Source: Rutstroemia sp. NJR-2017a BVV2
Taxonomy: Eukaryota; Ascomycota; Leotiomycetes; Helotiales; Rutstroemiaceae
Reading direction: 5' to 3'
Length of the DNA: 64,000 nucleotides
NCBI GenBank assembly: GCA_002946415.1
Contig: NJPS01000054.1
Coordinates: 186,001 to 250,000 of the forward strand
This document shows positions 32,235 to 52,147 of the stretch, piece by piece. A program made the translations under genes and the position numbers. How positions within the stretch are numbered: the stretch's first letter is position 1; every line of letters starts with the position of its first letter. The notes beneath the pieces are model-generated. The model had not been told where the DNA came from. It saw only the letters and a program-made list of their open reading frames with translations, and did not search any database.

Positions 32235-33734
32235 CTATCTCCTCTCACCAACTAGTACCACCCACACAGTCAGCACAATAAAACCCTCCACCCAGCATAA
32301 AAAAGTAGAAGAAGAAGAAAACTCACAAACAACCCTCCTCCCATCCCAATCAAACCCCACCTCAAACCTCCTCAAAACCGCACTCCCCATCAAAATCATC
32401 CTATCCTCAGGATCCCACCCCGGTCTCAGCACCTGCGGAAGCTCTTCAATCAAAGGCACACATTCCTCGACCACCTCCTCGGGTCTCCTACACTTCTTCT
32501 TGAACCTCAACGTGTAGTCCTCCCCTCTAAGCACGATCGTCCTCTCGCCTACTCTCAGCGCGATCTCGGGGAGATGGGGAACCGATGAGCAGGGTATATA
32601 CAATGTCCCGTCGCAGGGGCTGCGTTGTATAGGGAGTTCGGCGCGGATGGCTTGCGCGAGCGAGTCCGGGAAGGCGAGACACGGGTAGTTGGTCATGAGG
32701 ACCACGGGATGGTTGGCGAGTGATGCGTTGAGGAGAGTGTAAGGCTCGGAGTTGGGATACGAGGTATTGAGTTGGACGGAATGGGCTTCGATGCTCCAGG
32801 TCTCGGTATCAGGGGGAAAAAGCACATGAGTAGTGCTGTTAATGGGAGGAGCGGGCGCGGAGCCGAATGTGAGATGACCGGGAGATGTGGTGTTGAGAGG
32901 GAGCTGCAGGGTGAATTGGTTGGCCTCCAGGGCGTTGCTTTCGACCATGGTGCGGAATGGAGAGAGGAGGTTATCGGGTCGGGCGCTGTCCTGCCAAGGG
33001 TTCATTGCTTTTTCGGCGGATTTGCCGAAACTGAGGCCGAGGACGCCGTCGAAGAAATTGGTACCAGGTTCGTAGGAACTTTCATAGTACTTTAGTTCGG
33101 TGAATGATTGGTTCTTGAGGGTGAGAGATTCCCCTGTGGAGGAAGTCGCAAATGGGAGGGTGAGTGTGTCGAAGCCCTCGACGCCGTATGCGGCGATATA
33201 AAGTGGGACGTAATGAGTGTACGTTCGGGTTCCCTCGATGAGATAGGTGCTGGATTCGGTGGAATTATATAGTTGTAAGGTGAAATGCTTCTTTTCATTG
33301 TGATCCACAGAAGGTAAGAAGAGAGAAGACCTGTGACGATTAGTGTTTGTTTCTATCAATTCAATGACGCAGTGCCTGCCATGTGAGGTCTATAACTGCC
33401 CGGAAATCTTGCGGCGGTGTACCGACTTGAATGTTCGCTGTGTATTGGAACCAGTCGCCGGTAAACTATTTATCGTTATCAGCTTTCTTTACAAAGAAGG
33501 TCGTTTCATTCAACACACGGCAATAGGCAGCCCCAAGGGTCCGGAGCCACTAAACTCTTGGTGGTTCATGGGGACCTGCATCTTGGTCGCACGAGGATCT
33601 AACGGTCTGGGGGTTCTGGCATCATTATCACTCTTGTATGGGGATATTCTAGACATGTGAATTGGTAGCGTAAAGGGATGCCTAGCTTGGGCGCACCCTA
33701 GACCAACGAGAACTAATGGATAAATAGCCTTCAT
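32235..33734 (-). CDS. Secreted pepsin-fold protein without catalytic aspartates
   Basis: Exons 33734-33519, 33465-33371 and 33330-32235, about 468 residues. Intron 1 is GTGTGT...ATAG. Intron 2 only fits in phase as a 40-nt GC-AG intron (GCGTCA...CACAG), so that junction is less certain. A signal peptide (AIYPLVLVGLGCAQA) is followed by GDWFQYTANIQVGTPPQDF, the hallmark entry to the A1 peptidase fold. NFFDGVLGLSF and many N-glycosylation sites follow. The first catalytic DTG is replaced by DLTW, and the region where the second DSG should lie reads VVLMTNYPCLAFP, so proteolysis is unlikely. The family contains many such pseudo-proteases. The end is a hydrophobic stretch, FIVLTVWVVLV, then a basic tail, possibly a membrane anchor. 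A strong GTGAGT at 32326-32321 could instead begin another intron. An ATG at 33761 would add nine residues. Confidence 0.72.
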
Positions 33735-34548: not shown

Positions 34549-35379
34549 TTAATTGAAAACACAATAAACATTACTATTCTCAGTTATATCAAGAACAATC
34601 TTAGCAGTCTTGATATCAGCTCCATTCACGTCCTCAACCAAAACACATTCGTCGCCATCTTTCTTCCCGCCAACGGTCATAAAGGCGCCCTTATTATACT
34701 CTTCAAGCTTCAGTCTCCGTCCAAACTTGAGCCTCTTCACGCGGAACGCAAACACAAATTCCGACTCGCGATTAGACTCCGTCGCATCATCATTCGTGCT
34801 AGTCCAGTAGCCTTTCGGGCCAAAGGTCGTGCCCAGCGCGGTCACGTCGATGCCGAGATTCCCCTTGACCGTCGTGCTCTGTGAAGTCGAGTATTTGATC
34901 TTGGCGCCCTTGACGAGCTTCATGCCCGTGACGATGAAGAGCTCGCTGACGAGTGCGAACTTCTGCCTGGGCTCTCTCAGCCATGTCTGCACGGCCGGTG
35001 CCTTGACGGCCTCTTCCACGTATTCCTGGGTCGGCTCGAACGCCAGCGTCGTCACCGTATCGAACGCGAACGTATTTACCGTTTTGTTCGAATGCTCAAC
35101 GTTTACCTCGGGACCAAGGGGCAGTCCACCGGTAGCCAGCTGCAGGAACTGTGCATAGACACCCAAACCGAGCCCCTTCTCGGTTGAAATAGTCTTCTTC
35201 CAGTCGGTCTCCACGACAGGTGGAAATGCATCAGCCACGGCAACAACGCTCGCTCTGTTCAGAGGATATTGCGGTGCTGACGTGGAGCGGATTATAGACC
35301 CAAGACATAGCGGGCCTGTTGGTGGTGGATATATGAAATCGGATGTCGGACACAGAAAGTATGTCTTGGTAAAAGACAT
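34549..35379 (-). CDS. Gasdermin-like cell-death protein candidate (RCD-1/HET-Q1 type)
   Basis: Single-exon 276-residue protein starting MSFTKTYFLCPTSDF and continuing with PPPTGPLCLGSII. This opening, with an aromatic/Leu strand, a proline-rich turn and then GP.xLG.II, is what I recognise in small fungal gasdermin-like proteins of 250-290 residues. No signal peptide or conventional transmembrane helix is present, which fits a soluble protein forming beta-barrel pores. FRVKRLKFGRRLKLEEYNKG near the end is strongly basic, and the last 44 residues after Phe233 would form a short C-terminal tail. In HET-Q1 a subtilisin-like protease removes a similar short tail to activate pore formation; whether that happens here is inference. 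A candidate protease lies about 9 kb away (44424-47457). The stop codon lies within AT-rich DNA. The identification rests on motif memory, not a search. Confidence 0.58.
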   Translation of the reverse strand: MSFTKTYFLCPTSDFIYPPPTGPLCLGSIIRSTSAPQYPLNRASVVAVADAFPPVVETDWKKTISTEKGLGLGVYAQFLQLATGGLPLGPEVNVEHSNKTVNTFAFDTVTTLAFEPTQEYVEEAVKAPAVQTWLREPRQKFALVSELFIVTGMKLVKGAKIKYSTSQSTTVKGNLGIDVTALGTTFGPKGYWTSTNDDATESNRESEFVFAFRVKRLKFGRRLKLEEYNKGAFMTVGGKKDGDECVLVEDVNGADIKTAKIVLDITENSNVYCVFN

Positions 35380-36569
35380 AGCTTCAAGATTCAGGTTCAG
35401 ATACCGGGATTTCCTTAGAACTAAGGGAAATGATCGAAGAAGTAGAAGAAGAGTATATTGAGAAATATCTCGTAATTATCAGAGAGCTGAAATGAAGGAG
35501 TTGGGATTTAGAAGATTAATTATCTGAAAAGGCGGGGAAGCGGAACTTGATCGGCTGATAAATAAAGTTAATATTTTAAATTGATATATATAAAGAGATT
35601 TAAAAAAGAGAATAATAATAATTAACTTATATTTAAGTTAGACTTTATTATTAAATTTTAATTATAATAAACTTTTAATAATAAAATAAATTTAATTTTA
35701 GAATTAATAATTAAAGAATTAAAAGAATTTTGAAATTCGAAAAAATTTAAATATAAAAAACTAATTATATATAAAATATAAAACTAATTTAGATTAATTT
35801 AATATTATAAAAATTTAAATAAAAAGTTTAATTAAATCAATTCGAAATTATAATAGAATATAAAATTGATATTTTTATTACTAAATTATATATTTAAAAA
35901 GAATATTAAATCAGATTGATAATCTAATTTATATCGAATTATATAAAACTTCTAAGTTATTATAGAAATTATAATATCTTAAATATATTAATAAATCAAT
36001 ATAATATTTTTATAAATTATAATAATATTTTTATTTATTATATATAAATTTAAAATAAAGTTATATATTTTAAAGTATACTATATAATATAAAGAATAAA
36101 GATTAAAATAATATAATTTTATAAAAAGAAGAAAAATATAAAGTGGAAATTGAAAGAGTTTAAATATCCAGTATTTAGTTTCTATTTAGAGATCGCCTAG
36201 ATATAATATAGCTACTATCTTAACTATTAATCTTCTTTTAGTCCCTGCTTCCCACTTGGCCGCTAGATTGCGCCCTTACATTATAAATAAACCTAGTTTA
36301 AGATATTAACCCTGCTCGTCGGGCGATTAGCCTCCGTTTACCTGCCTTCTTGCATGATCAACCCCCTAAACCTCAGCTCCTCTCATTTCAATACTCTGCC
36401 ACTTTTGGAGTTCAGTTGTCACAAATTGAATATTATATATATTAATATATAATATACTACTATCTCAACAAAAATAAAGCAAGAGAGAAACTTCTTCCTT
36501 TATCTTACATTTCCACTTACTTCAAAGTCCGCCCTCCCCACATTACATTATCATTAGACACGATAGCAA
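35380..36569. other. AT-rich RIP-like tract
   Basis: From about 35530 to 36180 the base composition is extremely AT-rich with TTAAAT and TATAAT words and no usable reading frame, which suggests an old repeat destroyed by RIP. The stretch 36180-36569 returns to balanced composition and includes the promoter and leader of the PAQR gene. An ATATAT palindrome is at about 36430-36452. The element of origin cannot be recognised. Confidence 0.65.
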
Positions 36570-37675
36570 ATGGCATCCACTTCCCGTCTTCGAGTTACGC
36601 CCCCGCAGCTGCCAGAAGCGCACAAAGGGTGGGAAATGGAATTCATCAGCGACACCGCATCCAAGGTCGGCAGAGCAGAACGCCCAGTTCTTCTCTCGTT
36701 CGATGAGATGCCAGAATGGTTCCGACGTGAATCCAACCAGTGGATTCTTCATGGCTATCGCCCTATCTCAGGCTCGGCTCACGCTTCGTTCTGCAGCTGG
36801 TTGTATATCCACAATGAGTCGGTCAACATCTATTCTCACCTCATCCCGGCTGTTTTCTTCCTGCTCGGCGAGTGGTATATCCAGCAGTACCTTACCAGCA
36901 GATACTCCGGGGTCACTGGCGCCGATTTTATTGCTTTCTCCATCTTCATGTTGACGGCCGTCGCGTGCCTGTCCTTGTCGGCGACGTATCACACCTTAAT
37001 GAACCACTCCCAACGCGTGGAACATTTCTGCCTGCGACTGGACATGCTGGGCGTGGTGATCTTCATACTGGGCGACCTTGTCTTGGGAATATACATGATT
37101 TTCTGGTGTGAACCTTTGCCACGCAATATCTACTGGTCTTTGGTTAGTTAATCCCTATATGCAATTTTGTTTTTCCTCATCTCAGACCTGGTACTTGAGT
37201 CTAACACTCCTCTTTCCCCGGTTGATAGATTGGAGTTTGCGGGACGTTGACAATCTTCATGACAATGCATCCCAAGTTTCAGGGCTCAAAGTATCGCCTC
37301 TTCCGAGCATTGATGTTCGTGGCGACTGGCTTATCCGGTGTTGCGCCCTTGATCCATGGATTATATGTGTTCGGCATGTCGCAGATGATGAGAAAAGCTT
37401 TTCCCTATACTTTGGCAAAAGCAGGCTGCCTTCTATCTGGGACTTCGTTTTATGCAGTAAGTCTCCCAATTTCGCACACAAGAGAGAAATTGACCCTAAC
37501 ACATGTGGTCCTGAAGACCAGGTTTCCCGAAAGTCGATATCCTGGCACATTCGACCTATGGGGCTCCCATTCGATCTTTCACATCCTGGTGGTATGCGCC
37601 GCTGTGGTCCAGTTGATGGGGTATCTGGATGCCTTCGACTATGCTCACGCAAATCTTACTTGCTCGTCTCTTTGA
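36570..37675 (+). CDS. PAQR / hemolysin-III family membrane protein (ADIPOR-like, Izh type)
   Basis: Exons 36570-37142, 37229-37456 and 37517-37675; GT-AG introns in phase; 319 residues. The N-terminal cytoplasmic part contains LLSFDEMPEWFRRESNQWI and GYRPISGSAHASFCSWLYIHNE-type sequence, the fungal Izh/ADIPOR signature: an aspartate-rich entry followed by HNESVNIYSH. Seven hydrophobic segments follow. Conserved zinc-site elements are present: SATYHTLMNHS with its Ser/His, and GSHSIFHILVV with the HxxxH pair near the C-terminus. Yeast relatives act in zinc and sterol/ceramide homeostasis as receptor-like ceramidases. It lies between the gasdermin-like gene and the NLR in an AT-rich setting, but whether it takes part in that system is unknown. 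Gene structure and residues look intact. Confidence 0.9.
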
Positions 37676-38253
37676 CTTATGTATACATGCCGAGTATGGA
37701 GCTTCTGGCCACGGGGACGAGCTTCTAAACGCTGACTGTATGATAGCGAAGAGAAGCATATGATCTGATTGCTGCTAGCAATGTCTGATACTTATTATAA
37801 CTGCCTGTATTGTATCCAATGGCATCATCCACAAAGGGACTTGAAATCTGTTCTCCTATCTGTTCTCCTAGTGTGGATTTCTTTAAGTATTTTAAACTCG
37901 AGATTGACGAAGGGATCTGTTTCTTGGATATTGCCGTCTTGCTTTCCAGTGGCACACAGTCCCGAAAGTGCAAACCACCTCTCCTTCTTTCTGGCAGACT
38001 TCTCGAAAGGGGATGTGCGCTTTTCTGAAGCCACGAATGCCAAACACTACGTCGTGTCTCATGAACTGATGAGATTCTGCGGTAGCTGCTCCCTGTGACG
38101 GAGGGAGTTGTAACGATAGCTGCCCCACAGTTGCCCCGCAGTCACATGGTATCTTTGTGTAGCTTTCCTCGCCCACCTCAAATTCCTCGTGTCCTCTCTT
38201 TCCTTTTCCCACCTCATAATCTTCATCCATAGCTCCAATAGGAACTAGCTCCC
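37676..38253. other. Spacer, no supported gene
   Basis: About 580 bp of balanced composition. Open frames on both strands lack recognisable content. It may include decayed sequence of the gene to which the following WD40 relic belonged. Confidence 0.4.
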
Positions 38254-38406
38254 ATGCTGCCTGATGGCCGCCGGCTCGTGTCGGCGTCGGAGGACGGTAC
38301 CGTCAAGCTCTTGGATACGGCAGACCGCCGTCTGGTGACAATTCAAATGGGCAGAGCTCTCGGTCATATCTCTTTCGATGCGACAACTACGATGCAGCTG
38401 TACTAG
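38254..38406 (+). pseudogene. WD40-repeat relic (probably the tail of a lost NLR)
   Basis: A 50-codon frame reads LPDGRRLVSASEDGTVKLLD, a textbook WD40 blade. It continues RRLVTIQMGRALGHISFDAT, which matches the blade-plus-linker sequence found after the WD40 array in fungal NACHT-WD40 (HNWD/NWD) proteins. It ends at a TAG within AT-shifting DNA. There is no upstream array, so this is a fragment. It suggests that a WD40-type NLR once lay here, just 5' of the solo LTR at 38551. Confidence 0.7.
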
Positions 38407-38545
38407 GGATAAATGGTTGCCTTGCACCTCGATCGCCCAGAGGAGCGGCAAATATGCTCGTATGAATTTAGAAATATAATTAGCTCGTTTATGAAATATA
38501 TTTAGCTTCTTATTGTTTTAAAAGTTTAGAATTATAAATGATTCT

Positions 38546-38801
38546 ATAATTGTTAGGGTTTACTGGTAGGGAATTGTAAGAGTATCGTGGTACAGTAGTA
38601 ATATTGCCGGAGCCCAAACATAGGGCTCTAGTTGAAGATAAACTAATTGCTACTGATCTTCTTTCCTTATTGCTATTCCTTATATTGGGGTCCCTTAGGG
38701 TGGGAACCCCGTTTCTCGCTCGATCAACCTCCGCTACCCCTCTTATGTAGGTGATTAACGCCCGGACCCTCGAATTCCCCTTCTACACTCCTGACAATAA
38801 T
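38546..38801 (+). mobile_element. Solo LTR, copy 1 (246 bp, with 5-bp target duplication)
   Basis: The element proper is 38551-38796. It begins TGTTAGGG and ends CCTGACA (TG...CA with inverted ends), and is flanked by a perfect ATAAT direct repeat (38546-38550 and 38797-38801). A TATA-like CTCTTATGTAGG lies near the right end. The same 246-bp sequence recurs at 43864-44109 (same orientation) and 47652-47897 (opposite orientation). No internal retroelement region is present, so this is a solo LTR left by recombination. Confidence 0.93.
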
Positions 38802-39008
38802 TTACAGTTTAAACTATAGTTTGATCAATTTATATAAGTTATTTATATTTATAAACAATTAATTAAAAGTATATTTAAATATTTCTTAATTAACTATTAT
38901 TTCAAAATTAATTTTAAAAACAATATATAAAATATTATTAATACAAGCTCAAATTTTCCATGTAAGTTAGCTCTGCTACTTTTAAAATGGAAATATTACA
39001 CAATTACT
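38797..39008. other. AT-rich tract at the 3' end of the NLR gene
   Basis: About 210 bp of strongly AT-biased DNA between solo LTR copy 1 and the stop codon of the NLR gene. No gene. Confidence 0.6.
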
Positions 39009-42000
39009 TTATGAATCAAGAATGCGATTCATCATATGTCCGACTCCTAGCAAGGACTGCAGATGCTGTTCCACTCTTTGTCTCGGTACGCCTCTAGGTA
39101 ATGTCAAACCATACTGCTTCCCAATGATCAGGCACTCCACCAAAGTCTTGCAAGCGCGCTTTTGTAGCGATCCCGGAAGTTCCTTCGCTATCAACGCCCC
39201 TATTTCCTCCGGGATGGCCTCACCAATCAGCCACTGGTGAGCGAGGGCATTCTCCTGGCAGAGAATCAAGCATGCTGCCGAGGGTACATTGAGAAAGTGG
39301 TCCTGTCCTTTCTCATGTGTCTGCTGGGCGAACTGGAAAATAGTGGTCAGAAAAAGACGTAATCTGGCAGAGTCGCGACTTTCGCTGATGACAAATAGCT
39401 CATTTGCGCATGCCTGATTCGCATCGCTGGACAATTCAACCTCGTAACTGCTGCCGATGTATCCTTCGAAGAAGTCCGCGACGACCCGGGAGAAATATTC
39501 GATCGGCCCTTGTTCCTGTTTGTCGATCATGGCGAAGTGGCCTGTCATGAGTAGGGCCGTCCGAAGTACGTTCTCTTCCCGATTCCCATTCCGAACACAG
39601 CCATCGAAGTCGCTCAAAAACTCGCGAATGCCAAAATGGAAGAATTCCAAGGCGTCCCTGTCATAGGCGATGGCGGCCCAATCTGAAATTGCCGCAGCTG
39701 TGATGGCAGCCCCATCTCTCCATCCGTGTTGGATAGCCGCGAGTTTCGTTTCCATGCCGGTGAAGACTGTGATGGTCAACAGTGCCTGAAGATCTCTGGG
39801 CGCGACCTTCTGCAAGATCTGCGTCGACAGGTCGCCCATGGCCTTCAGCCTCTTCGGATTCCTGGCGACAACCAGCCCCAAGAAGAACACATGGTACAGT
39901 TTCGCCCATTCTCGCAGTTCGTCCGTTTTGTTCTCCTGGACAAGCTCCTGTAGTACAGACAGACTGTCCCAGCGGTTCAACGCCACAAACTTGAGATAAA
40001 GGGACATCAATTCGAGAACGAGGGGAAGGCGGAGGGAAAGGGCCAGCCCTTTCATGACCAGATCGACAAATCGTGACGAACGCTTGAAGCGTGCGAGAAA
40101 AACCTGCTCCTGGAGCCCAAGTAGCTCTTTCACCCGCTCGTCCACCGGGTCCGTAGGTCCCATCAGGGAAGCAACTCCCAGAAGAGCTGGCAATTTGTCC
40201 ACGCGAGCTCCGTGTTCAAGTAATTCCTGCGTCATTTCTCTCGAATTCGACAGAATGGCTCGCATCAACGGCGTGTCCATGTCGCCATGCTCCCCCTTAG
40301 CCTCGAGACGGGCGCCGTGTTCGAGAAGCATAGACACGACGTCCCTGTGCTGTCCGGTGACCGCGATATGGAGTGCCGTCAACATGCTTCGATCTTTAAA
40401 ATTGACACGCGCACCATGGCCAAGCAGCAGTTCCACCATTTCTCGGTGACCTTGGTTGACGGCCCAGGACAGCGGCGTCCGGCCGTAGTTGTCCTTTCGC
40501 GAAATGAGGCGGGCATGCTTGCTGGTCAACAACTTGGCCCAGGGTACGTTGCCAAAGTATGCCGCGAGATGCAAGAGTGTGAAGGAGGGCGGGCTTCCGC
40601 CGTTCTTCTCCTGCTCCCAGTACACTTTCCACCATTCCTCCCGGATCGGAGAGTTGACTTGGAAGAATGGACGTAAGAACTCAGACGGTGCATCGATAAC
40701 ATGTATGGCGTGGTGGAAATGCACCGGCCAGTACTGGCTGGCATAAGATAAGAAGGGATCGTGGCTAGACATTTCGTGAATCCTTCCGCGATTTCCGTAT
40801 CCGTGTTCGACGTGTGTTAAACAGGTCTGCATGAGAGTTCTGTGGGTGTGCTGGCTCATATGGAACATGTTGATCCCTTTGATGTTGACTTGATCGCTCT
40901 GAAAGAACTCCTTCGCCGATTCGTGAACCAGGTTGACGACATCTCCTTCGACCTTCACGAGCAACCCCCCGAACCTGAGCCGATTCTTGGTCACTTTCGT
41001 TGCTGGAAGAGTACCAGCTGCCTTGATCCCTGCGGCTACGGTCAATTCTTCCAGTGTGAGGGGCCGGGCAGCGAGAACGACCCATTGAAGAATGGGGACC
41101 AATGCTTCCTTGTCGCTGATCTGCTGAAGAAGCCGCTGATAAATCCCACCCAGGCCTTTAGGAACATGGCGGAGAACTTCATCGATTTTGCTCCAACTCC
41201 TGCCTTGAAGCTCATTGACAACGAATCCAACCCATAGAAAGGTCCCATCAGCGCCAGCCAGCAAGGTCTGCTGAATCTGCGCGACTATCTCTTCGGAAAT
41301 GTTTTGCTCGGATGCCAGTTCTGCAACTTTGGCGAAGATGTATCTCTCAACATCATGCGAAATTTCTGTGTCGGAGGCGTCCAGCTGGATCTGCTGATAT
41401 TGGCCGAGTTTGGTCTCCAGAACAGTCGGCTGAGGTCGGGAGAGGATAATGAGCTTCAGTCGTGGCCTTGCCATTTCCCCAGACTTCGACAAGTACTTCC
41501 CGACGGCATCTAGAAGCTGCTTAAGTGATTCCTTTTCGCATTCATCCAGACCGTCCAGAACACAGACTACCTGGGAAGACGTGCTCTGCTGAAGTAGGGT
41601 CAGGAAAACCCTCCACAACGAGACAAAACTAGAAATGGTATATTTAGTTGTTTCCGTCCCCTCGAAGGAGTTCTTGATGTCTTTAGCCAGATGCGGATGG
41701 AGGTCGATCCATTGATGCAGGATGCCCCTCATGATTGTCAATGCGGTGTTCCGATTCTTGTCGCGGTTACTGCAGAAGTAGTAGAGGAGAACATTGTCAG
41801 CGGTGTCAACCACTGGCTGTAGTACCTCGGTGATATAAATCGCCAGCATGGTCTTCCCTTTTCCAGGGCCACCTGAGATCCAGAGGAGTGATTGGTTTGC
41901 ATCTGCCAGCCACTCTTGATAATGGGGATGCTGTGTGAGCCATTCGCAAGTGCCGTCAACCCTGCGCCCTTTCAATGCAATAAGGGACTTTCGATCAACC

Positions 42001-43013
42001 TCGGGTCTTGTCAGAAGCAAAGCGTCAAGAACGGGCGCGGCCTCGGCATAGGAGTTTGTGGCCAGAGGTATCGTCTTGAACACCGTGGGTATGAAAGAGA
42101 GGACCTCTTTTGCATACGCTGCGGCAGCCGCTGCGGCGTAGGCGTGCCAGAGCTCGGACCTGTGCGAATCTGCGTAGTCGCAAATTCCTCGGATAACCAG
42201 GTACTGGGCGGCATTTCTCAGCCCGGTTGCCTCCGTCTCAAAACAGAGAATGCCATGCTTGTGTGCGAACTTGTCCCGGGTCGCTCCGTGACGCGTCAAA
42301 TGATGGCTGGAGGCAATCAGGCCATAATGAACTATGGGGTCCTGTATCTCCCGAGGCTGCCGGGATCGGATCCTGTCCGGGTCGCAATGACTGCATCCAC
42401 TTTCTTCGGATTCGATAGTTGCATGATAATAATTCGGTTCGAAGAGGACGTCTTGCTCTGGGCCAGGGTGGGCAAAGGTGACGGGGTCTTTCTGCACGAT
42501 GTCGGAGATGTACTGGGGCATCTTACTTTCATCAAAAATGGCGGCTGTCTCGGCTTTCCCCATAGCTGTGAGAAGCAGTGGTATTGGCTGATCTAACGCT
42601 CTGCCGCGAACAGACTGATCTTCTGTTCGCTCCCCATTCACGTCATACTGGACGACACCCGGCCTGCCAGCTGTCGACTTGCTGACAACAACATCACCAA
42701 GACGAATATCCTCCTTCGTATCGGGCACTCCTCCCGCAATGCCGACCATGAGATTGAACCGGACAGATGTGTAGCTTGCGTGCAACTGTGTGGCCACGTC
42801 GGCCACCGACGTTTTACCACACACCCCAGAATTCGGATATGCCACAACGACATTGTGGCCTTGAACACTCCCCAGAATGTAGTTATTGTTGTCGTCTGAG
42901 TTCTGATACGGAGGTAGATTCTCATTGACGCGATCAAGCGTTGCTTTGGCTGCGGCGACCTCTATAGGCAGTGCACAAACCCACCCAATTGTGTAGTCAT
43001 CATGGGACGCCAT
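39009..43013 (-). CDS. NLR-like receptor: PNP_UDP - NACHT - ankyrin - long C-terminal region
   Basis: Intronless 1334-residue protein. Residues about 8-310 form a nucleoside-phosphorylase-like (PNP_UDP_1) N-terminal domain: YTIGWVCALPIEVAAAKATL, LMVGIAGGVP, LGDVVVS and then CFETEATGLRN and IRGICDYADSH, in family order. A NACHT follows, with Walker A GGPGKGKT at 381-388 and Walker B VCVLDGLDEC near 483-492, then the winged-helix-like region to about 720. Ankyrin repeats run about 810-940 (NYGRTPLSWAVNQGHREMVE and three neighbours). The last 390 residues have no recognised domain. This is a common fungal NLR layout: the N-terminal domain signals, NACHT oligomerises and repeats sense ligands. 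All key motifs are intact, so it looks functional. It lies between solo LTR copies 1 and 2, which are in direct orientation. Confidence 0.94.
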   Translation of the reverse strand: MASHDDYTIGWVCALPIEVAAAKATLDRVNENLPPYQNSDDNNNYILGSVQGHNVVVAYPNSGVCGKTSVADVATQLHASYTSVRFNLMVGIAGGVPDTKEDIRLGDVVVSKSTAGRPGVVQYDVNGERTEDQSVRGRALDQPIPLLLTAMGKAETAAIFDESKMPQYISDIVQKDPVTFAHPGPEQDVLFEPNYYHATIESEESGCSHCDPDRIRSRQPREIQDPIVHYGLIASSHHLTRHGATRDKFAHKHGILCFETEATGLRNAAQYLVIRGICDYADSHRSELWHAYAAAAAAAYAKEVLSFIPTVFKTIPLATNSYAEAAPVLDALLLTRPEVDRKSLIALKGRRVDGTCEWLTQHPHYQEWLADANQSLLWISGGPGKGKTMLAIYITEVLQPVVDTADNVLLYYFCSNRDKNRNTALTIMRGILHQWIDLHPHLAKDIKNSFEGTETTKYTISSFVSLWRVFLTLLQQSTSSQVVCVLDGLDECEKESLKQLLDAVGKYLSKSGEMARPRLKLIILSRPQPTVLETKLGQYQQIQLDASDTEISHDVERYIFAKVAELASEQNISEEIVAQIQQTLLAGADGTFLWVGFVVNELQGRSWSKIDEVLRHVPKGLGGIYQRLLQQISDKEALVPILQWVVLAARPLTLEELTVAAGIKAAGTLPATKVTKNRLRFGGLLVKVEGDVVNLVHESAKEFFQSDQVNIKGINMFHMSQHTHRTLMQTCLTHVEHGYGNRGRIHEMSSHDPFLSYASQYWPVHFHHAIHVIDAPSEFLRPFFQVNSPIREEWWKVYWEQEKNGGSPPSFTLLHLAAYFGNVPWAKLLTSKHARLISRKDNYGRTPLSWAVNQGHREMVELLLGHGARVNFKDRSMLTALHIAVTGQHRDVVSMLLEHGARLEAKGEHGDMDTPLMRAILSNSREMTQELLEHGARVDKLPALLGVASLMGPTDPVDERVKELLGLQEQVFLARFKRSSRFVDLVMKGLALSLRLPLVLELMSLYLKFVALNRWDSLSVLQELVQENKTDELREWAKLYHVFFLGLVVARNPKRLKAMGDLSTQILQKVAPRDLQALLTITVFTGMETKLAAIQHGWRDGAAITAAAISDWAAIAYDRDALEFFHFGIREFLSDFDGCVRNGNREENVLRTALLMTGHFAMIDKQEQGPIEYFSRVVADFFEGYIGSSYEVELSSDANQACANELFVISESRDSARLRLFLTTIFQFAQQTHEKGQDHFLNVPSAACLILCQENALAHQWLIGEAIPEEIGALIAKELPGSLQKRACKTLVECLIIGKQYGLTLPRGVPRQRVEQHLQSLLGVGHMMNRILDS

Positions 43014-43863
43014 CTCCGGCCAGGGTACAGATCATGAAATGAGAAACTCCAGAAGCGTTGGTATTAGGTGTTGTGTTAGGTATGCTGAAAACATCTGTCC
43101 AATTTTATGACGAGGTGGACTTTCCAGAACATTGCGCGCATTGTTGTAGGTGAGCAAAGTAATGAATCAAACAAGGAGTACAGCAAACATGCAAGGGGAC
43201 AGACAGGCTCTCCATCCGCATTCTCCTTCAGCCTCAGATGTGTAACTTGCAACTTGCTTGGGCCCACTCACACCTTAATTTCTCGATGCCCCTTTCGTCA
43301 GAAACACAGACAACCTGGAATGCAGTTAATTAAAAATGTTGGTCTGCACATCTAAGCGGACGCTTTCCCACAGACTCACCACACGTACTCGGCCAGTTCT
43401 CGAACGAGTACCTGTGAAGGTGTCTGTACTTCTAGGCAGCTGCTAGGGTATATGCAGGTTCCCTGCTTTTGTCGCGACGGCTAATTGTGTAATTTGAAGC
43501 TGACTATTCTAGTTTGAACAATTTAATATAGTTAGTTTCTATTTGTTCTATTATATATATACAAGTTGTTGAGGCTATAATAAACAAGGAAAAAATATAA
43601 CTAATAATAAATAAAGTTATTATTTTATTTTTATATTTATAATATATATATATAATTATAAACCAATTAATTTTTATAATATTAAAACTTCTAATATAAT
43701 AATTATTTAAATATTTTTTTTCTAATATAATTTTAATATTATAAATCAATTTTATTAACTAGATAAATATAAAACTTAAATTAATATATATAATCTTACT
43801 AGATATTAAGTCTTCGCTATAGCTGCTTTGGGTTTGAGATAAAGAAGCGACTTTTATAATAAC
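43014..43863. other. NLR promoter and AT-rich tract
   Basis: The first 450 bp, upstream of the minus-strand NLR, have balanced composition and hold its promoter. From about 43500 to 43800 the DNA is almost pure A/T, a RIP-like relic with no identifiable origin. No gene. Confidence 0.55.
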
Positions 43864-44114
43864 TATTAGGATTTATTGGTAGGGAATTATAAGAGTATCG
43901 TAATATAGTAGTAGTATTACCGGAACCGAAATATAGGGTACTAGTTGAAGATAAACCAATTACTACTGATCTCCTTTCCTTTTTGCTATTCCTTATATCA
44001 GGGTCCTTTAAAGTAGGAATCCTGTTTCTCGCTTGATCAGCCTCCGCTTCCCCTCTTATATAGGTAATAAATGCCCGAACCTTCGAATCCCCCTTCTTTA
44101 CCCCTGACAATAAC
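43859..44114 (+). mobile_element. Solo LTR, copy 2 (246 bp, with 5-bp target duplication)
   Basis: The element is 43864-44109, flanked by a perfect ATAAC duplication (43859-43863 and 44110-44114). It aligns end to end with copy 1; most differences are G-to-A or C-to-T transitions (for example the terminal TGTTAGGG has become TATTAGGA), the pattern expected of RIP. It retains TCTTATATAGG as a TATA-like box. No internal region. Confidence 0.92.
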
Positions 44115-44423
44115 TCGTGCTGTGCCTCAAAACTAGCTGACGGAATATGCACAAATATTGCCCAAGTGGGAAAAATGGTGATTTGCTTATCTATGGGCCA
44201 GCACTCATTATTTCTGGCCAGGCTTGGCTGCGGTCAGGTTGCAGCGAGAGATCGTAGACCAAACACGGCAAGTCGTCCTGAGGTTCTGGGTGTGAATGTA
44301 GCCAGCCTGATCCGACACAACCTGATCGATCAATACACAGCACACTCCCGCTGATTGACCAATGTTCTTCCAGTCAAAGAATCCCAGCGAAATCTTCAAA
44401 CCCATCATTCTGGATGCGCAACC
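44110..44423. promoter_or_regulatory. Upstream region of the S8 protease gene
   Basis: 314 bp between solo LTR copy 2 and the protease ATG. It must hold the leader and part of the promoter. The LTR, in the same orientation as the gene and carrying its own TATA-like box 355 bp upstream of the ATG, could contribute promoter activity (inference). Confidence 0.35.
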
Positions 44424-47400
44424 ATGGAAAACGACACTGATTCCCAAAGTCTGCTGCAATCCGTGCTTGGATTATTCGCTCGAATACGACCGCAAAGGTC
44501 AGCAGAGCCGGCGTCACTGAGATCACGGAAACGGGAGGCCTGGCTACGGACGGATGCATTTCTGCAGCGCGATGATCTTGGCGAAGCTGACCCCGACAGC
44601 ATTGCAAGGACTCTGCGTGCATTTGAACATCTTGTTCAAGACGACTCTGATGGAGAGATAGATTTCGTAGGTATTCTTGATATACAGCAAACTCCAGTAT
44701 TTTGGTTTGTTGGTCTCTCACTTCCTGCCTACTAACGACAGTTCACGCAGCAGAGCTTCCAACAACCCGGACATGAGCGGTATCCGAAGCTTCGCCGCAT
44801 GATCGAGAATCCGAATCACGATCCGCATGCCGACCCAGGCACTGCCATTCGCGTTAGTAAACGGAGACGAGAATGCGATGATGCCATTCAGGAACTTTTG
44901 CATTTGGAACAGGAGCGAAAGAAGCGCCGAGTTCTGTCTCGTGATGAGCCAGCTTATGGGTCCAATCTCGAAGACCCCGATGCCGACTTCGCCGTGCTGA
45001 TGAGGAGACATTTGGTGTCCTTAGACAATGCCTTGCGAAGACACTGGGTTTGCGTTTGCCAGAAGTGCTCAGGGTTGAGTGTGAGACTGTCGCTGCCACA
45101 ACACAAAAAGGATCTCGAGGCTGAGGTGAGTTTCGAAGTATTCTTCGGTGTGCGGTCCGTACCTGCAACTTCATTGCAAGAAGCTAAAATCACGGTCAAG
45201 TAAGCTCTCGAAGCTTTGTGCGATGACTTCTATTCGCTAACACTGTCGGTGCAGAGACCTACACAACAGCACATTGAGGCGCTCATCTGAGCCTGTAATC
45301 AGCAGCCCACCCGACTTTGCCCAAATATGCCAAAGCATCACAGAGTCCCTCGGTCAGCGAAATTGCTTGCATTTCGCTCTCGAGGATGGGATATTTCAGA
45401 GGCTTCGCCCGCAACCAAAGACATTTGGTAGTGACCGAATGTCTCGGACAGTATCCTTGTCGGCATTGTTCAATCGCCAGCAAGAATTACTTCGTGGCGA
45501 ATCGGTACTGCCACTCAAGGGGAAGCGAGTCTTAGCTGTTACACTGGCTTCAGCACTCCTTCCCTTCTTGGAGACACCATGGCTGCAGTTTTCCTTCAAT
45601 CACTCAAAGATCCAGTTTTTTGAGCCACGGCAGGATGGAGAACTCCCCGACATCACGAAGCCTTTCCTGGCTCTGGAGCACGTTCCAATCATCTCAGCCC
45701 GCAGTACAGACACAAGAGACAGCTCTGGCGCCTCGAAACACATGGTTCATCCCAACGCCAGTGTGCTAGCGCTAGGCATACTCTTGTGCGAGCTTCACTA
45801 TTGCACACCTGTGGAGCTGATGGCAAAGGACCCTCATGTGGCCAGGAACGTCAATGATGATTTTTATACCTGTCTCGATAAGCTTCAGACTCTGGAAGAT
45901 GACGCTGGTGTGGATTACTATCTCGCTACGAAGGCATGCCTTACTGGGGAGTACTATCCCCTTGGACAGCACGCTGACTTCGAAGATGTCAGCGTTCAGC
46001 GACTCTTTTACCAAAACATCGTCAAACGACTTGAGGCCGTGATATTCAAGGCATGGGGCATTCGATTAGAGAATTTGGGTTCATTCGATTCTCGACAAAA
46101 TGAATCCTGTTGGGGCTCTATCGGTCGAGAAGTTGTCCGCCTCCATACAGGCAATGTCGATTCCTCTAATGCAAACAATGCAGCAAGGGCAAGTACGCAG
46201 CGTTCAAAGTCTGACACCACGCCCGTGAGCTACGCATCCCTCCACTCAGATATCGTGCTACGGATGTCGACACAACCTTCTTCGGGATCGCAAGCCCACG
46301 GACACCTCGTTGGGCCTTCAGAGAAGAGCTTGTACTTTTTTGATGCAAGCCACCAGACGGGTTCTGAACAAGAGTGAGGTGTTTCCCTTGGCTATAAGAC
46401 TTCGTCGTACTAATGGCCTGCCAGGAATGCACTCTCGGAAGGATGGATGGACAATCTGCTGTCCTCGATCTATCCCTATGTTGACCCTGTTTTCGACCTT
46501 GTCGAACCGGTGCGAATAGCGATTTTGGACTCCGGATTCGACCCCGAAAACCCATTCCTGATCGAGCACCAACAACAAGCCAACCCACGAATCAAGGAAG
46601 CGCGAAGCTTTGTACATGGAACAGAACCGCACGAAATTCGAGACGAGATCGGGCACGGTACTCATGCTCTTGGTCTCCTTCTCAAAGTTGCCCCATGCGC
46701 TGAGATCTATGTCGCCAGAATTGCGCGACGAGAAACTCTGGATTCCAATACCTACGATGACATTGCAAAGGCAAGGCTGTCTCTATACCACTGGCAGAGC
46801 AGGCTTTTTGGACTGAGCTAATGACCCGTGCAGGCCATCGATCACGCAGTTGAACAATGGAAAGTGGACATTATATCAATGTCATTCGGGATTCGTGAAT
46901 ATCACGAGCTCATGAATACAGCAATATCTAATGCACTAAACAAGCGGACGTTGTTGTTCGCGGCAGCATCGAACGATGGAGCAAATCTTGGCAGAGCTTT
47001 TCCAGCTCAGTATCCCAGCGTCTTTTGTATACACTCAACCGATGGAAATGGTAACCCCTCCAATTTCAACCCTACAGCAAGCGAAACGGACGTCAACTTC
47101 AGTCTACTTGGGGAGCATGTCTCTTCTCACTGGCCGGCTGGCATGAACGGACACGATCAGACTGTCAATGTTATGTCAGGAACATCGGTCGCAACACCCA
47201 TCGCCGCTGGCCTGGCCGCGTCGGTCCTGTCCTTTGTCCGGCAGCAGGATCGGCACATCGCTGTAGAAAGTGAAAGGCTGGGACCGTGGCTGAAAAGGGA
47301 CAATTCCATGGATGCAGTCTTTAAGAGTATGGTCAGACGGAGGCGGGGGGTAGGCTACGATTACATCACGCCTCATGTGCTCTTCGATAACGGTTCGACA

Positions 47401-47457
47401 AGGGAGGATGTTTATGGGAAAATCAAAGATATCAAAAGAAATATGTATAAATATTAA
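44424..47457 (+). CDS. Subtilisin-family (S8) protease with DUF7580-like N-terminal region
   Basis: Five exons: 44424-44666, 44751-45199, 45255-46373, 46425-46770 and 46834-47457, 926 residues. Exon 2 could begin at 44742 instead. The last intron is GC-AG (GCAAGG...GTGCAG). The start is ACCATGG. No signal peptide is evident, so the protease is intracellular. Residues about 80-590 resemble the DUF7580 region of fungal signalling proteins (helical N-terminus, LPLKGKRVLAVTLASALLPF, HPNASVLALGILLCELHY, TCLTGEY-type segment). The C-terminal S8 domain is complete: Asp639 in AILDSGFD, His681 in GHGTHALG, oxyanion Asn766 in AASNDG and Ser837 in SGTSVATPIAAGL. Similar cytosolic subtilisins partner gasdermin-like proteins (HET-Q2 with HET-Q1) or sit in NLR-type proteins. 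The last dozen residues (IKDIKRNMYKY) run into AT-rich DNA. It lies between oppositely oriented LTR copies 2 and 3. Confidence 0.92.
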
Positions 47458-47651
47458 TAGAAGTTTAAGAATAATTTAGAGAATATTAAATCTCAGAATA
47501 CTATACAAAATAATATCAAAGCGATATATATAATTATATATTTAGAAGTTGAAAATTATTAAAACTTTACGATTTTTCGGATTTAATATATAATATTAAT
47601 TTTATAATTATTCTAATATTATAATATATTTCTTCTAATTTAATAATTATT
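47458..47651. other. AT-rich tract at the 3' end of the protease gene
   Basis: Almost pure A/T starting at the protease stop codon and ending at solo LTR copy 3. No gene or intact repeat. Confidence 0.6.
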
Positions 47652-47902
47652 TGTCAGGGGTGTAGAAAAGGGATTCGAGGGTCCGGGCGTTGATCACCTA
47701 TATAAGAGGGGTAGCGGAGGCTGATCGAGCGAGAAACGGGGTCCCCACCCTAAGGGACCCTAATATAAGGAATAGTAAGAAGGAAAGAAGATCGATAGCA
47801 ATTAGTTTATCTTCAACTAGAGCCCTATATTTAGGCTCCGGTAATACTACTATTATACTGCGACACTCTTACAATTCCCTACTTGTAAACCCTAATATAA
47901 TT
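47647..47902 (-). mobile_element. Solo LTR, copy 3 (246 bp, inverted)
   Basis: The element is 47652-47897, the reverse complement of copies 1 and 2, beginning TGTCAGG and ending CCTAATA on the plus strand. It has exactly the same length. The flanking pentamers TTATT and TAATT differ by one base, so the target duplication is decayed. Transition differences again dominate. With copy 2 it forms an inverted pair around the S8 protease. Confidence 0.88.
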
Positions 47903-47955
47903 ATAATAAATAATATATATATCTAAATCAATTATTATTCATAATGCGTCATATA

Positions 47956-48695: not shown

Positions 48696-51600
48696 ATGGA
48701 AAGTCTCGAGCGCGCGGGAGACGAGTCTATGGAAGATGTCTTCCTCCAAGATGATCTCAGCCACACCATCGCAGAGCATGCGACACAATGCGAGTCTCTT
48801 TTCCACAAGTACATGGTCATGCCAAAAATCGTGCCAGACTCTACTATCATGGACGACCAGCTGGCACGCTTTTCTCTGTGGGCATCAAACATGGATGTTT
48901 ACGGGCCGCTCAATGTCTCGCTGGACTACAGACTGCGATTCAGTCCCACAGCCGCGGATATCATACATCAGCTCCTGGATATAATTTGCGATACCTTGCT
49001 GTCTTGTGAGTACTTTCCGTGCCACATTCGGATGGCTTGAACATCAAGGCTAATGGGAGTCTCGACAATAGTGAAGCCAATCGACCACCGACCACCACAA
49101 ATTTCGAGCAGGAAGAGACAACGCATTTCAGTACATGGCAATTCGGGAGTCACGAAGAGAGCCGACGACGAAGCAAGCGACTCGGGGAGCGATGTCGATC
49201 CAGTAGAAGAGAATATTTCGAAGATCACCGAGACAATCGGCGGAACATTGACTCGGCTCTTCCGTCTATCTAACGCTGTTCGAAAATCCGCCAAAGCCAA
49301 CCGGGCTCGCAAGATCGAAAGGTACAGAGACGACGAAGAGGCAAACAAGGCAATAGACGAGTTGCGTCTCTACACCAAATGCTATATTGAGTTCCGATTC
49401 CCGGAGGCGCCGGAGGCACTCCGGTCGACATTGCTCGAAGCCAACGCGCTGCGACTTCGACGGCTGTATTATCAGCGATCCCATCGAAGGCGCATTGATC
49501 TGAGTATTCAGAGCCGAAAAACGACTCCGGCCGTTGTTCAACTGCCCGAAATGACGAGGAGTGCGCCGGCTGTACAGTTTGCGTCGAGCGCGCTGCCAAA
49601 GCCTGCGATGACCAACGAAATGCCGGCACCTTCGCCAGCGCCAGCAACGAATGCGACTACTGCTCGACAAACTGCCGTTGCGGCCTTCTACGCCAAATCC
49701 ACAACTGAGGTTCCCCGGGCCAAATCTGTTCTTGTGAACAACAAGTTGTCGTTCCCTCCCATACCGTCGACGCAGCAGTGTCCATACTGCGGGGTCATTG
49801 TTGAGTTCAAGAACGCTGCAAGGTCATTGCTGTGGCAGTAAGCAAATAATTGCTGTCCTTTCATGGAAACATGTGGCTAATATGCACCAGGAATCATGTC
49901 ATCGCAGACTTGGAGCCTTTTGTTTGTTTTTTTTCACATTGCCTGGAAAGAGGTCACCACGGGCATGGGATCGGTCCGTTTACATTCGAAACGTCGAAAG
50001 CCTGGTCCAGCCATATGCAGACTGCTCACGGGCATACATGGGAGTGCAGGGCCCCTTCTCACGATCCAATCGTCTTTGACCAAGAGATCCAGTACCAGGA
50101 GCATTCCATTAAGGAGCACAGCGTGCCTGAAGCGCACGCCGGGACCCTCAGCAACGCCGCACGGAGGCCAGTCCTCGATAAAGTGCTGGAGTGTCCATTT
50201 GGCGACGACTTTCAACCCTCGGGAAAAGTCGAACCCAGCGCTGTCTTCTCGAGTGAAGCTCTCCAGGCACACGTCGCCGGTCATATGAAAGAAATTGCTC
50301 TGCTTACACTGCACAAACTTCCCAGCGATGATGACGAGAGCACGGAGAACGTCGATAGCGACCAACCGTTAGAAAATGATGGGCCGGCCGGGGCTTTTGG
50401 AATGACACGTGCATCCATGTACAGTGTACTGGACGACGAGGACCTAGATTTCCAAGACGATGACGCTGAGGCTGCAGATGGCAATGTGGGATACTGCGAA
50501 GAGGACATCAGTGCACGAGTGACAGTACTCGAGCTAGAGGAGAAAGACGACCTGGGGATGACGAGGCTTCACCACGCGGTGCAGACTGGCGATCTGGGCT
50601 TGGTTGAGTCCTTGATCCAGAGCGGCGTAAGTGTAAATTTTAGGGACGAAAATGGCCAAACGCCCCTGCATTACGCTGCGGAGAGGGGCTTTATCGAATG
50701 CATGGAAGTCTTGGTCAAGCACGGTGCGGATTTACATATCATTGACAACTCTGGATTTTCCTCGTTTCTCTGGGCTGTGGTTGCTGGGCAAGAAGGCGCC
50801 ACTACGAGACTGTTGGCCATGGACGCTGATGGCAATTCATTCAGCGCGGTTGGAAAGTCTGCTCTCGCTTGGGCAGCCAGTCTGGGACGGCCTCTGACTG
50901 CTAAAATTCTTGTTGAACACCTTGCCAGCATATCTGATACCCGAAATACGCAGCAGTCTCTGCCTTTGGAAGAAGCGGCAGCTTCTGGGAACCTTCCCAC
51001 TGTTCGATTGCTCCTTGAATGTGGTGGGGATCCGAACCATCGTGATCATGATGGATGGTCCGCGATACATTGGGCAGCAGAGGAGGGCCATCTGGAGATT
51101 GTGCGTTTGTTGCTGAACGCTGGGGCCAACCCCAATGCTGTCAGCTCTTACGGTACGTCACCATTGCACTGCGCTGCAAACGGAGGGCATGTTTCCATTG
51201 TGAGCTTGCTCCTCCTACAGCAAGCCGACCCACTCAAGTCAACATGCCACGGCTGGACTGCACTACACCATGCCGCATTCATGGGGCACTCCCATGTTGT
51301 CCAGGGCCTCTTAGAAGACGACCGCATACGATCCACTGCCTCTCAGCAGGACAACCACGGCTGGTCCGTTCTTCATTTGGCCATCCATAGTCGAGATCTA
51401 GCCACCGTCCGTATCCTGCTCAACAAATCTGTCATTGCCGAGCCTCAGACTCTATTCGACGAAAGCGGCCTCACAGCAGAAGAATGGCTGGATCGCGGGC
51501 CGACAAGCAATTCCCAGAAAGCCAGCAGCAACTTAGCGTTCAGCAAATCGCGCTGTTGCCGGGCCGTCACAAGCCTTCGTCAAGCTGTTACCATAGGCAA

Positions 51601-52147
51601 CGTTCCCATGATCAAACTTCTATTCAAATTGGGTCACGACATCAATGGCATGAACTCTGGAAGGAGGACTGCGCTCTACTACGCCGCGAAGAAGCGCATG
51701 CTTTCTATCATAGATCTGCTTCTTGACCTGGGTGCGGATCCCAACATTCTGCCCGCGGGGCGGAAGAACTGGGAAGAATTCATTTCGTCTGGTGACGTTT
51801 TACTGAGGCTCAACCGAGCAGGATACAGGAAGCGAGATACCGACCCTGAGGTGGAGCGCCAGATTCGTCAGGCGCTAAGAGTGCAAAGTCAGCTGTCTGT
51901 GCCGGATCAAGCAGCCTGGTTCGTATCAGACGAGTCGACTTTACCAATGCGGGACCGATCTATCTCCCATGGGCCGGACCGACCGTCCTCATCTGTTCCA
52001 GCTTCGTCAACGCCACCTTCTTCAGATCATGCAGCTTCAAGTAAACTGACGCGCTCGCCGGCGCCTAAACACCAAACGAATGATAATAAGCGCAAGACAA
52101 AGTCAGGTCGGACAGTTTGGTGGAAACGTCTTATAAATAGAAGATAA
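48696..52147 (+). CDS. C2H2-type / ankyrin-repeat protein of the fungal NLR-associated kind
   Basis: Exons 48696-49005, 49072-49837 and 49891-52147; GT-AG introns; 1110 residues. The N-terminal helical region (FSLWASNMDVYGPLNVSLDY, then TLTRLFRLSNAVRKSAKANR) is the conserved start of a large fungal family that often carries zinc fingers and ankyrin, NACHT or other domains. Cys/His clusters follow: CPYCGVIV near residue 340, NHVIADLEPFVCFF, SHMQTAHGHTWEC near 400 and AHVAGHMKEIALL near 480. About ten ankyrin repeats span roughly 578-975, with consensus blocks such as NGQTPLHYAAERGFIECMEV and DGWSAIHWAAEEGHLEIVRL. There is no NACHT or kinase domain, so it is a partial NLR-like or adaptor-type protein. 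The tail is basic and Ser/Pro-rich and ends at the boundary of AT-rich DNA. Its role next to the NLR and protease is inferred only from position. Confidence 0.88.

What the first reader, a model, noticed from the sequence alone, without database searches (positions are those of the whole stretch)
34549..47457. Candidate cell-death island: gasdermin-like protein, NLR and subtilisin-like protease within 13 kb
The three parts of a known fungal death circuit lie together: a 276-residue gasdermin-like candidate, an intact PNP_UDP-NACHT-ankyrin receptor and a cytosolic S8 protease with a complete catalytic triad. Established: the subtilisin-like HET-Q2 cleaves the gasdermin-like HET-Q1 to trigger cell death in Podospora. 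Here the protease carries a long DUF7580-like N-terminal region and the NLR lies between it and the gasdermin candidate, a layout I have not seen described. That they form one pathway is inference.
Basis: partly seen in the sequence, partly recalled or inferred. Interest (0 to 1): 0.9.

Follow-up and report, generated by a model that had tools for sequence, protein, structure and literature searches.

The report
Travelling fungal cell-death gene cluster
A fungus carries, side by side, genes for a membrane-piercing suicide protein, a protease of the type that switches such proteins on, and a separate immune-type receptor; very similar sets sit together in distantly related fungi, which suggests that a whole self-destruct circuit spreads between species.

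Summary

I first took the receptor for an intruder; that was wrong. Relatives of the three genes share contigs: gasdermin + protease 30, gasdermin + receptor 32, protease + receptor 22, all three 13; about 0.05 expected by chance. Where locus tags are sequential they lie 1-4 apart.

Between fungal classes the genes reach 91-94% identity, above eEF2 (86%). Single-class clades are mostly rejected and the genes diverge together (r 0.65-0.94). I read this as transfer of the cluster as a unit.

Gasdermin-protease pairs are published; a separate receptor linked to them across classes I did not find in the papers I could search. That the protease cuts the gasdermin (candidate site F233) and that the receptor acts upstream are inference. 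A PAQR gene (36570-37675) may be a fourth member.

The parts
34552..35379 (-). Fungal gasdermin (P0001), 276 aa, executioner candidate; conserved F233 leaves a 43-residue, 4.6-kDa C-terminal tail
   Evidence: F233 in 64 of 65 aligned sequences, the window's included
36570..37675 (+). PAQR / haemolysin-III membrane protein, 319 aa, exons 36570-37142, 37229-37456, 37517-37675; possible fourth member
   Evidence: HlyIII E 4e-22 and 3.7e-18 on two frames; gene model; membership only guessed from one or two unidentified tags between gasdermin and NLR in other genomes
39012..43013 (-). NLR: PNP_UDP_1 (8-298), NACHT-type (354-526), winged helix, ankyrin repeats, long C-terminus; 1334 aa, single exon
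44424..47457 (+). Protease gene, 5 exons, 926/929 aa: about 160-residue N-terminus, DUF7580 (165-492), linker, S8 subtilase with D639/H681/S837
   Evidence: S8 fold on relative P0122
38546..38800 (+). Solo-LTR-like repeat flanked by the 5-bp duplication ATAAT (transposon remnant, not part of the circuit)
43859..44113 (+). Solo-LTR-like repeat, 84% to the first, flanked by ATAAC
47644..47915 (-). Third copy of the repeat, inverted, 84-87%

Best explanation
A conserved cell-death cluster for regulated suicide of the fungal cell, which has moved between fungal classes as a unit. Proposed action: the NLR (PNP_UDP-NACHT-ankyrin) detects a foreign or altered component in the cytosol, for instance after fusion with a non-self hypha or a virus or parasite attack, and oligomerises. 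Directly, or through the products of its nucleosidase-like domain, it releases the separate S8 protease from inhibition by its long DUF7580 region. The protease cuts the gasdermin after about residue 233, removing a 43-residue inhibitory tail, and the gasdermin perforates the plasma membrane. The PAQR protein, if a member, could act on membrane lipids at the site. Shown here: gene content, catalytic and nucleotide-binding motifs present, conserved linkage, matched divergence, conflict with fungal taxonomy. Inferred from HET-Q1/HET-Q2: the cut and the pore. Inferred without precedent: NLR upstream, role of DUF7580, role of PAQR.
For: Gasdermin identity. Linkage: exact contig lengths shared by gasdermin+protease 30, gasdermin+NLR 32, protease+NLR 22, all three 13; 58 contigs with two or more; chance 0.035-0.07. 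Locus-tag distances: protease-gasdermin 1 in 8 of 9 and 2 in 1, gasdermin-NLR 2-3 in 9 of 9, protease-NLR 2-4 in 6 of 6. Matched divergence: Mantel r 0.65, 0.84, 0.94, 0 of 2000 permutations as high; cross-class pairs alone 0.59, 0.79, 0.93. Transfer: cross-class median identity (77.2/66.9/73.0%) not below same-class-other-genus (75.4/65.1/71.0%), MAGs left out; the AU test rejects one Sordariomycete clade and one Eurotiomycete clade for each of the three genes; A. multicolor is nearer T. arundinaceum (83/78/80%) than three other Aspergillus (77-80/69-70/68-74%) in every gene. Cleavage: HET-Q1 (278 aa) is held to be cut at F238 by the S8 protease HET-Q2 with loss of 40 residues (PMC10989679); here 276 aa, F233, 43 residues, 4.6 kDa. 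In this genome the two other gasdermin-like genes found at E<1e-3 also lie beside an S8 gene.
Against: No experiment. The NLR's place upstream is guilt by association; it may have its own effector (PNP). Linkage in other genomes is read from contig lengths and locus tags, not from DNA; 68 of 107 protease contig lengths have no partner in the (partly cut) lists. Class labels still cluster on the trees (0 of 500 shuffles as low for Sordario- and Eurotiomycetes in each tree; the three Leotiomycete NLRs stand together), so descent is partly vertical; Dothideomycete monophyly is not rejected for the gasdermin (p 0.40) and was not finished for the NLR. No captain gene lies near (the one DUF3435 remnant on this contig is about 200 kb away, with stops), so no vehicle is identified. 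The gasdermin model is of low confidence. DUF7580 as kinase-like is weak (hhalign probability 35%; the whole-protease profile aligned elsewhere).
Confidence: 0.58

Rival explanations
1. Two-gene gasdermin-protease unit plus a passenger NLR. The protease is itself the sensor through its DUF7580 region (the published Q2L model), and the linked NLR runs a separate death or defence reaction with its own PNP domain; they travel together as a small defence island.
For: Gasdermin and protease are the tightest pair elsewhere (tag difference 1 in 8 of 9). The NLR has its own effector-type domain with conserved Asp279 (64 of 66) and Glu259 (56 of 66, Asp in the other 10). A second DUF7580-S8 + gasdermin-like pair in this genome (contig C26) has no match of the NLR search on that contig (which scored 35 of 358 candidates).
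Against: NLR and protease show the strongest matched divergence of all (r 0.94), and gasdermin-NLR linkage is as frequent as gasdermin-protease (32 and 30 contigs), more than expected of a passenger.
Confidence: 0.28
2. Old vertical inheritance: an ancestral Pezizomycotina cluster under extreme constraint, with early duplicates sorted differently among lineages, gives the cross-class similarity without transfer.
For: Taxonomic labels are not random on the trees. Some species hold diverged copies (Fusarium oxysporum proteases 82 and 51%).
Against: Best cross-class identities of 91.5-93.6% exceed eEF2 (86.5%, 352 of 407) and FAS beta (82.8%, 289 of 349) of this fungus against structures recalled to be from Chaetomium thermophilum; same-genus pairs of the same genes fall to 67, 50 and 58% at the low end; NLR relatives inside this genome are at most 42% identical in matches longer than 100 residues (35 of 358 candidates scored).
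Confidence: 0.1
3. Selfish or allorecognition cassette: the cluster persists because strains or spores without it are killed, as with het loci and spore killers, not because it defends against pathogens.
For: HET-Q1/HET-Q2 and RCD-1 are allorecognition systems (PMC12881547). Two diverged gasdermin lineages both straddle classes (A. multicolor with Trichoderma against three other Aspergillus in all three genes), as alternative alleles might.
Against: No population data; gasdermin and protease are in one genome rather than alternatives at one locus as in het-Q.
Confidence: 0.15
4. Chance neighbourhood of three unrelated fast-evolving genes in a transposon-rich stretch.
For: Three solo-LTR-like copies and AT-rich blocks interrupt the region.
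Against: 58 contigs shared by relatives of two or more of the genes.
Confidence: 0.01

Closest known systems
HET-Q1 / HET-Q2 of Podospora anserina
   Same: Gasdermin of about the same length (278 against 276 aa), S8 serine protease, Phe leaving a 40-43 residue tail (for HET-Q, here)
   Different: HET-Q2 is 388 aa, here 926; het-Q1 and het-Q2 are alternatives at one locus, here both are in one genome; no NLR is described in the passages read
Fungal gasdermin + Q2L protease two-gene clusters
   Same: S8 protease gene within 10 kb of a gasdermin gene; proteases fused to other domains, predicted kinase-like ones included (PMC10197012, PMC12881547)
   Different: Here a third, unfused NLR is linked, and close relatives of the set (gasdermin 84-91%, protease 85-92%, NLR 84-89% between Periconia, Pyrenophora, Coniella and the Pyrenula MAG) occur in different classes
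NLR-S8 and NLR-CHAT fusions controlling gasdermins
   Same: NLR, protease and gasdermin are the three working parts
   Different: There receptor and protease are one protein; here they are two
Mammalian NLR inflammasome (NLR, caspase, gasdermin)
   Same: Three separate proteins: receptor, protease, pore former
   Different: Protease family (S8 against caspase), no CARD/PYD in the Pfam scan of the NLR, genes clustered, no signalling shown
RCD-1 of Neurospora crassa
   Same: Closest solved structure and sequence
   Different: RCD-1 works by heteroallelic pairing, not by cleavage (PMC12881547)

Membership tests
Fungal gasdermin | Sequence homology to a proven fungal gasdermin | tested here: met
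   RCD-1-2 E 5.3e-10, profile 1.4e-11
Fungal gasdermin | Gasdermin N-domain fold | tested here: met
Fungal gasdermin | Forms pores and kills after activation | not testable with these tools
   needs expression
Q2L (HET-Q2-like) protease | S8 domain with intact Asp-His-Ser | tested here: met
Q2L (HET-Q2-like) protease | Gene within 10 kb of a gasdermin gene | tested here: met
   9.0 kb here; adjacent tags in 8 of 9 genomes
Q2L (HET-Q2-like) protease | Cleaves its gasdermin | not testable with these tools
   needs assay
Q2L (HET-Q2-like) protease | Kinase-like regulatory domain (one published architecture) | tested here: inconclusive
   DUF7580 (7 frames of this genome) against 10 kinases of this genome: hhalign probability 35%, E 4e-4 for one comparison; one search aligned elsewhere; the fold list was filled by the S8 domain
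NLR | NACHT with Walker A/B, repeat domain, N-terminal effector | tested here: met
   Walker A Lys and Walker B Asp in 66 of 66
HET-Q allorecognition system | Gasdermin and protease are idiomorphs | tested here: not met
   Both are present in one genome here and on the same contig in 30 cases
HET-Q allorecognition system | Polymorphism and incompatibility between strains | not testable with these tools
   no population data held
Starship cargo | DUF3435 captain at the element's end | tested here: inconclusive
   Only match on this contig C50:21519-22519, about 200 kb away, with stops; element ends not sought, other genomes not tested

The most novel reading that the evidence does not exclude
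Fungi possess an unfused, inflammasome-like pathway (NLR, separate S8 protease with a regulatory domain, gasdermin, perhaps a PAQR membrane protein) encoded as one compact cassette that is passed horizontally between classes of Pezizomycotina: a eukaryotic counterpart of the mobile defence islands of bacteria.
Probability: 0.42. Interest if true: 0.9.

Novelty: new variant of a known kind. Interest (0 to 1): 0.74.

Why it matters
What activates fungal gasdermin proteases, and whether a fungal NLR can act on a separate protease as animal ones do, are open (PMC12881547, section 20, names the stimuli as a major open question). A conserved receptor-protease-gasdermin set makes this directly testable by reconstitution. 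If the set moves between classes as a unit, it supports the proposal that clustering of cell-death genes favours horizontal inheritance of the whole pathway (PMC9815663, passage) and the suggested analogy with bacterial defence islands (PMC10197012, section 15).

Tried and rejected
Intruder hypothesis: after I took the NLR for an insertion that split a two-gene cluster; one search refuted it, since the NLR is linked as often. NLR inside an LTR element: rejected, because the two flanking copies each have their own target duplication, so they look like independent solo LTRs. Starship vehicle: searched in the own genome only. Kinase fold for DUF7580: sequence profile weak, whole-protease profile aligned elsewhere, fold search filled by subtilisins; no statement on the DUF7580 fold. 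Relatives' DNA: viral contigs with the gasdermin gave none; with the protease profile one weak S8 locus at 24% identity, not followed up; genome contigs gave none. PNP as an ATP-degrading effector is known to me only from recall; the one paper search for it listed nothing with that term (15 of 757 listed). DUF7580 is in no held paper. Benchmark: 7old and 7q5s as Chaetomium thermophilum and 4v58 as Thermomyces lanuginosus are recalled; the tool prints no organism. A third, very weak gasdermin hit on C5 (E 0.07, with stops) was not examined.
Full report

Linkage elsewhere. Protein searches listed 120 of 310 gasdermin relatives, all 108 protease relatives found (only the 7,997 best candidates were scored) and 120 of 2,399 NLR relatives (one is the window's own). 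Each row gives the exact length of the longest contig. With that length as a fingerprint, gasdermin and protease share 30 contigs, gasdermin and NLR 32, protease and NLR 22, and 13 hold all three; shifting the lengths by 1-200 bases gives 0.05, 0.07 and 0.035 on average. These are probably lower bounds, because two lists are cut off and each row stands for a 90% cluster; 39 of 107 protease contig lengths have a partner in the lists and 68 do not. Some shared contigs are whole chromosomes or long scaffolds, some are small: 27,809 bp (Periconia), 67,875 (Coniella), 80,564 (Pyrenula, a MAG). By eye I picked out 18 genomes where two lists show the same tag prefix with sequential numbers: protease and gasdermin differ by 1 in 8 of 9 and by 2 in one, gasdermin and NLR by 2 or 3 in 9 of 9, protease and NLR by 2-4 in 6 of 6. 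Pyrenula reads protease-gasdermin-x-NLR, Fusarium FIESC RH6 protease-gasdermin-x-x-NLR, Pestalotiopsis NLR-x-protease-gasdermin. The window reads gasdermin-PAQR-NLR-protease, so the protease seems to have changed place here. That x is PAQR is only a guess.

Movement between classes. I labelled by class the rows with a usable species name: 64 of 120 gasdermins, 63 of 108 proteases, 65 of 120 NLRs. Dropped were the unnamed metagenome rows and some other named ones, mostly partial proteins or further strains and species of the same genera. Classes were assigned from recall; eight species were looked up, all as assigned. Without the MAG rows (62, 62 and 63 left), the median identity of cross-class pairs is 77.2% (gasdermin), 66.9% (protease) and 73.0% (NLR); pairs of the same class but different genus give 75.4, 65.1 and 71.0%; same-genus pairs 82.2, 76.1 and 81.9%. 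So beyond the genus, class makes no visible difference. The nearest relative outside the genus is in another class for 22 of 62, 37 of 62 and 25 of 63. The lists were drawn by likeness to the window, which favours similar rows from every class; this can flatten such medians, but it cannot make cross-class pairs of 91-94% (93.6% Xylaria grammica-Exophiala gasdermin; 92.0% Periconia-Hyaloscypha protease; 91.5% Exophiala-Stachybotrys NLR). Trees (quick, LG+G4) reject one clade of Sordariomycetes for gasdermin, protease and NLR (AU p 6e-4, 5e-41, 8e-5), of Eurotiomycetes (0.0135, 3e-7, 4e-79), and of Dothideomycetes for the protease (1.7e-4) but not for the gasdermin (0.40); for the NLR that last test did not finish. 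Against this stands a real taxonomic signal: for the two large classes no shuffle of 500 needs as few changes in any of the three trees, and the three Leotiomycete NLRs stand together. The history is therefore mixed.

The three genes share that history. Distances between genomes correlate: gasdermin-protease r 0.65 (30 contigs), gasdermin-NLR 0.84 (32), protease-NLR 0.94 (22), none of 2000 permutations as high; among cross-class pairs only, 0.59, 0.79 and 0.93. In the 13 genomes with all three on one contig, Aspergillus multicolor is nearer Trichoderma arundinaceum (83/78/80%) than A. karnatakaensis, A. spectabilis or A. stella-maris (77-80/69-70/68-74%) for every gene. As a yardstick, the first 407 aligned residues of a 615-residue eEF2 frame of this fungus are 86.5% identical to PDB 7old, and 349 residues near the C-terminus of FAS beta 82.8% to 7q5s and 86.5% to 4v58 (organisms recalled). 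The window's NLR matches that of Stachybotrys at 91% and is thus as conserved as core machinery, while NLR relatives inside the same genome are 24-42% identical in matches over 100 residues (up to 49% in shorter ones; 35 of 358 candidates scored). The class of the window's own fungus is unknown, but the named cross-class pairs do not depend on it. I take the horizontal reading as about 85% likely.

Positive controls in the same genome. Two further gasdermin-like genes were found at E<1e-3. C39 (29-32% identical) ends next to a gene whose frames read patatin-like (by eye) and then S8. C26 (20%, RCD-1 E 0.0015) follows a second DUF7580-S8 gene; it matches the C39 gasdermin at E 1.5e-11 but was not found with the window's gasdermin as query. 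With the window, 3 of 3 lie within 10 kb of an S8 gene; at 12 distinct S8 places in the genome, one such case has a chance of about 0.6%. C26 was met because I was looking at a DUF7580-S8 gene, so it is not an independent case. A fourth hit, on C5, is weak (E 0.07, with stops) and was not examined. The list may be incomplete, because only single-protein searches were possible.

How it may work. HET-Q1 (278 aa) is held to be cut at F238 by HET-Q2 (388 aa), losing 40 residues (PMC10989679, passages read). Here F233, conserved in 64 of 65, would leave 43 residues of 4.6 kDa. The extra 600 or so residues before the S8 domain, which a 388-residue HET-Q2 cannot hold, are the natural place for control. 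The NLR's N-terminal domain is a nucleoside phosphorylase relative with conserved Asp279 and Glu259 (that these are the catalytic positions is recalled). PNP_UDP proteins also occur among het loci of Aspergillus fumigatus (PMC11138114, passages). Whether the NLR acts on the protease, or beside it, cannot be told from sequence.

Literature. Read: sections 15 of PMC10197012 and 20 of PMC12881547; passages of both and of PMC11138114, PMC9815663, PMC12258605, PMC10989679, PMC12506042. The key paper (Clave 2022, PNAS) is not held; its content is known here through the reviews. Among the rows listed by the searches I saw no paper that, by title, abstract start or passages read, describes a separate NLR linked to a gasdermin-protease pair or the transfer of such a cluster; several of these lists show 20 of many more. 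PMC9815663 proposes horizontal inheritance of clustered pathways as a reason for clustering. The reviews mention two- or three-gene clusters, so part of this may be in papers I could not read.

Verdict. The finding is right and stronger than its author could know: a conserved cluster that has probably moved between classes. It is a new variant of the known gasdermin-protease clusters. The upstream role of the NLR is the open and testable point.

Noticed in passing
L032 (own genome C26:30000-39900), about 2986-5921 and 6551-7459: A second DUF7580-S8 protease gene followed in the same direction by a third, 20% identical gasdermin-like gene; the NLR search shows no match on this contig.
   Followed up: partly
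L029 (own genome C39:150000-159999), about 2000-4351 (+) and 4439-5329 (-): A second gasdermin converging on a gene whose frames read patatin-like phospholipase (by eye) then S8 protease: a different sensor architecture next to a gasdermin.
   Followed up: partly
window 38546-38800, 43859-44113, 47644-47915: Three solo-LTR-like copies (84-87%) around the NLR and protease genes; target duplications ATAAT and ATAAC read for the first two. AT-rich blocks (13-31% GC), most with a raised TpA/ApT ratio, as repeat-induced point mutation would leave, separate the genes.
   Followed up: partly
own genome contigs C25/C74, C8/C37, C47/C30, C71/C2: Pairs of contigs give identical hits, some at identical coordinates: the assembly seems to hold duplicated or haplotype contigs.
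   Followed up: no
window 48700-52147: Ankyrin-repeat frame (49850-52144) downstream of the protease on the same strand; whether it belongs to the cluster is unknown.
   Followed up: no
window 32235-33389 (-): Aspartyl protease (Pfam Asp E 1.9e-16) beyond the 3' end of the gasdermin gene.
   Followed up: no
relatives P0036, P0045, P0054, P0070, P0086 and others: Gasdermins fall into two lineages (24 and 41 rows, support 100), each with more than one class; Aspergillus has members in both. They could be alternative alleles or duplicates of the whole cluster.
   Followed up: partly
relatives P0007, P0017, P0021 and others: Some close relatives of the gasdermin are listed with the Pfam family PF26164, but scanning P0007, P0002, P0108 and the window's own gasdermin against the Pfam copy at hand gave no family at E<=1.
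   Followed up: no
own genome C50:21519-22519 and C11, C17, C59: DUF3435 (Starship captain family) genes, matches without stops on C11, C17 and C59, broken on C50: the genome may carry Starships.
   Followed up: no
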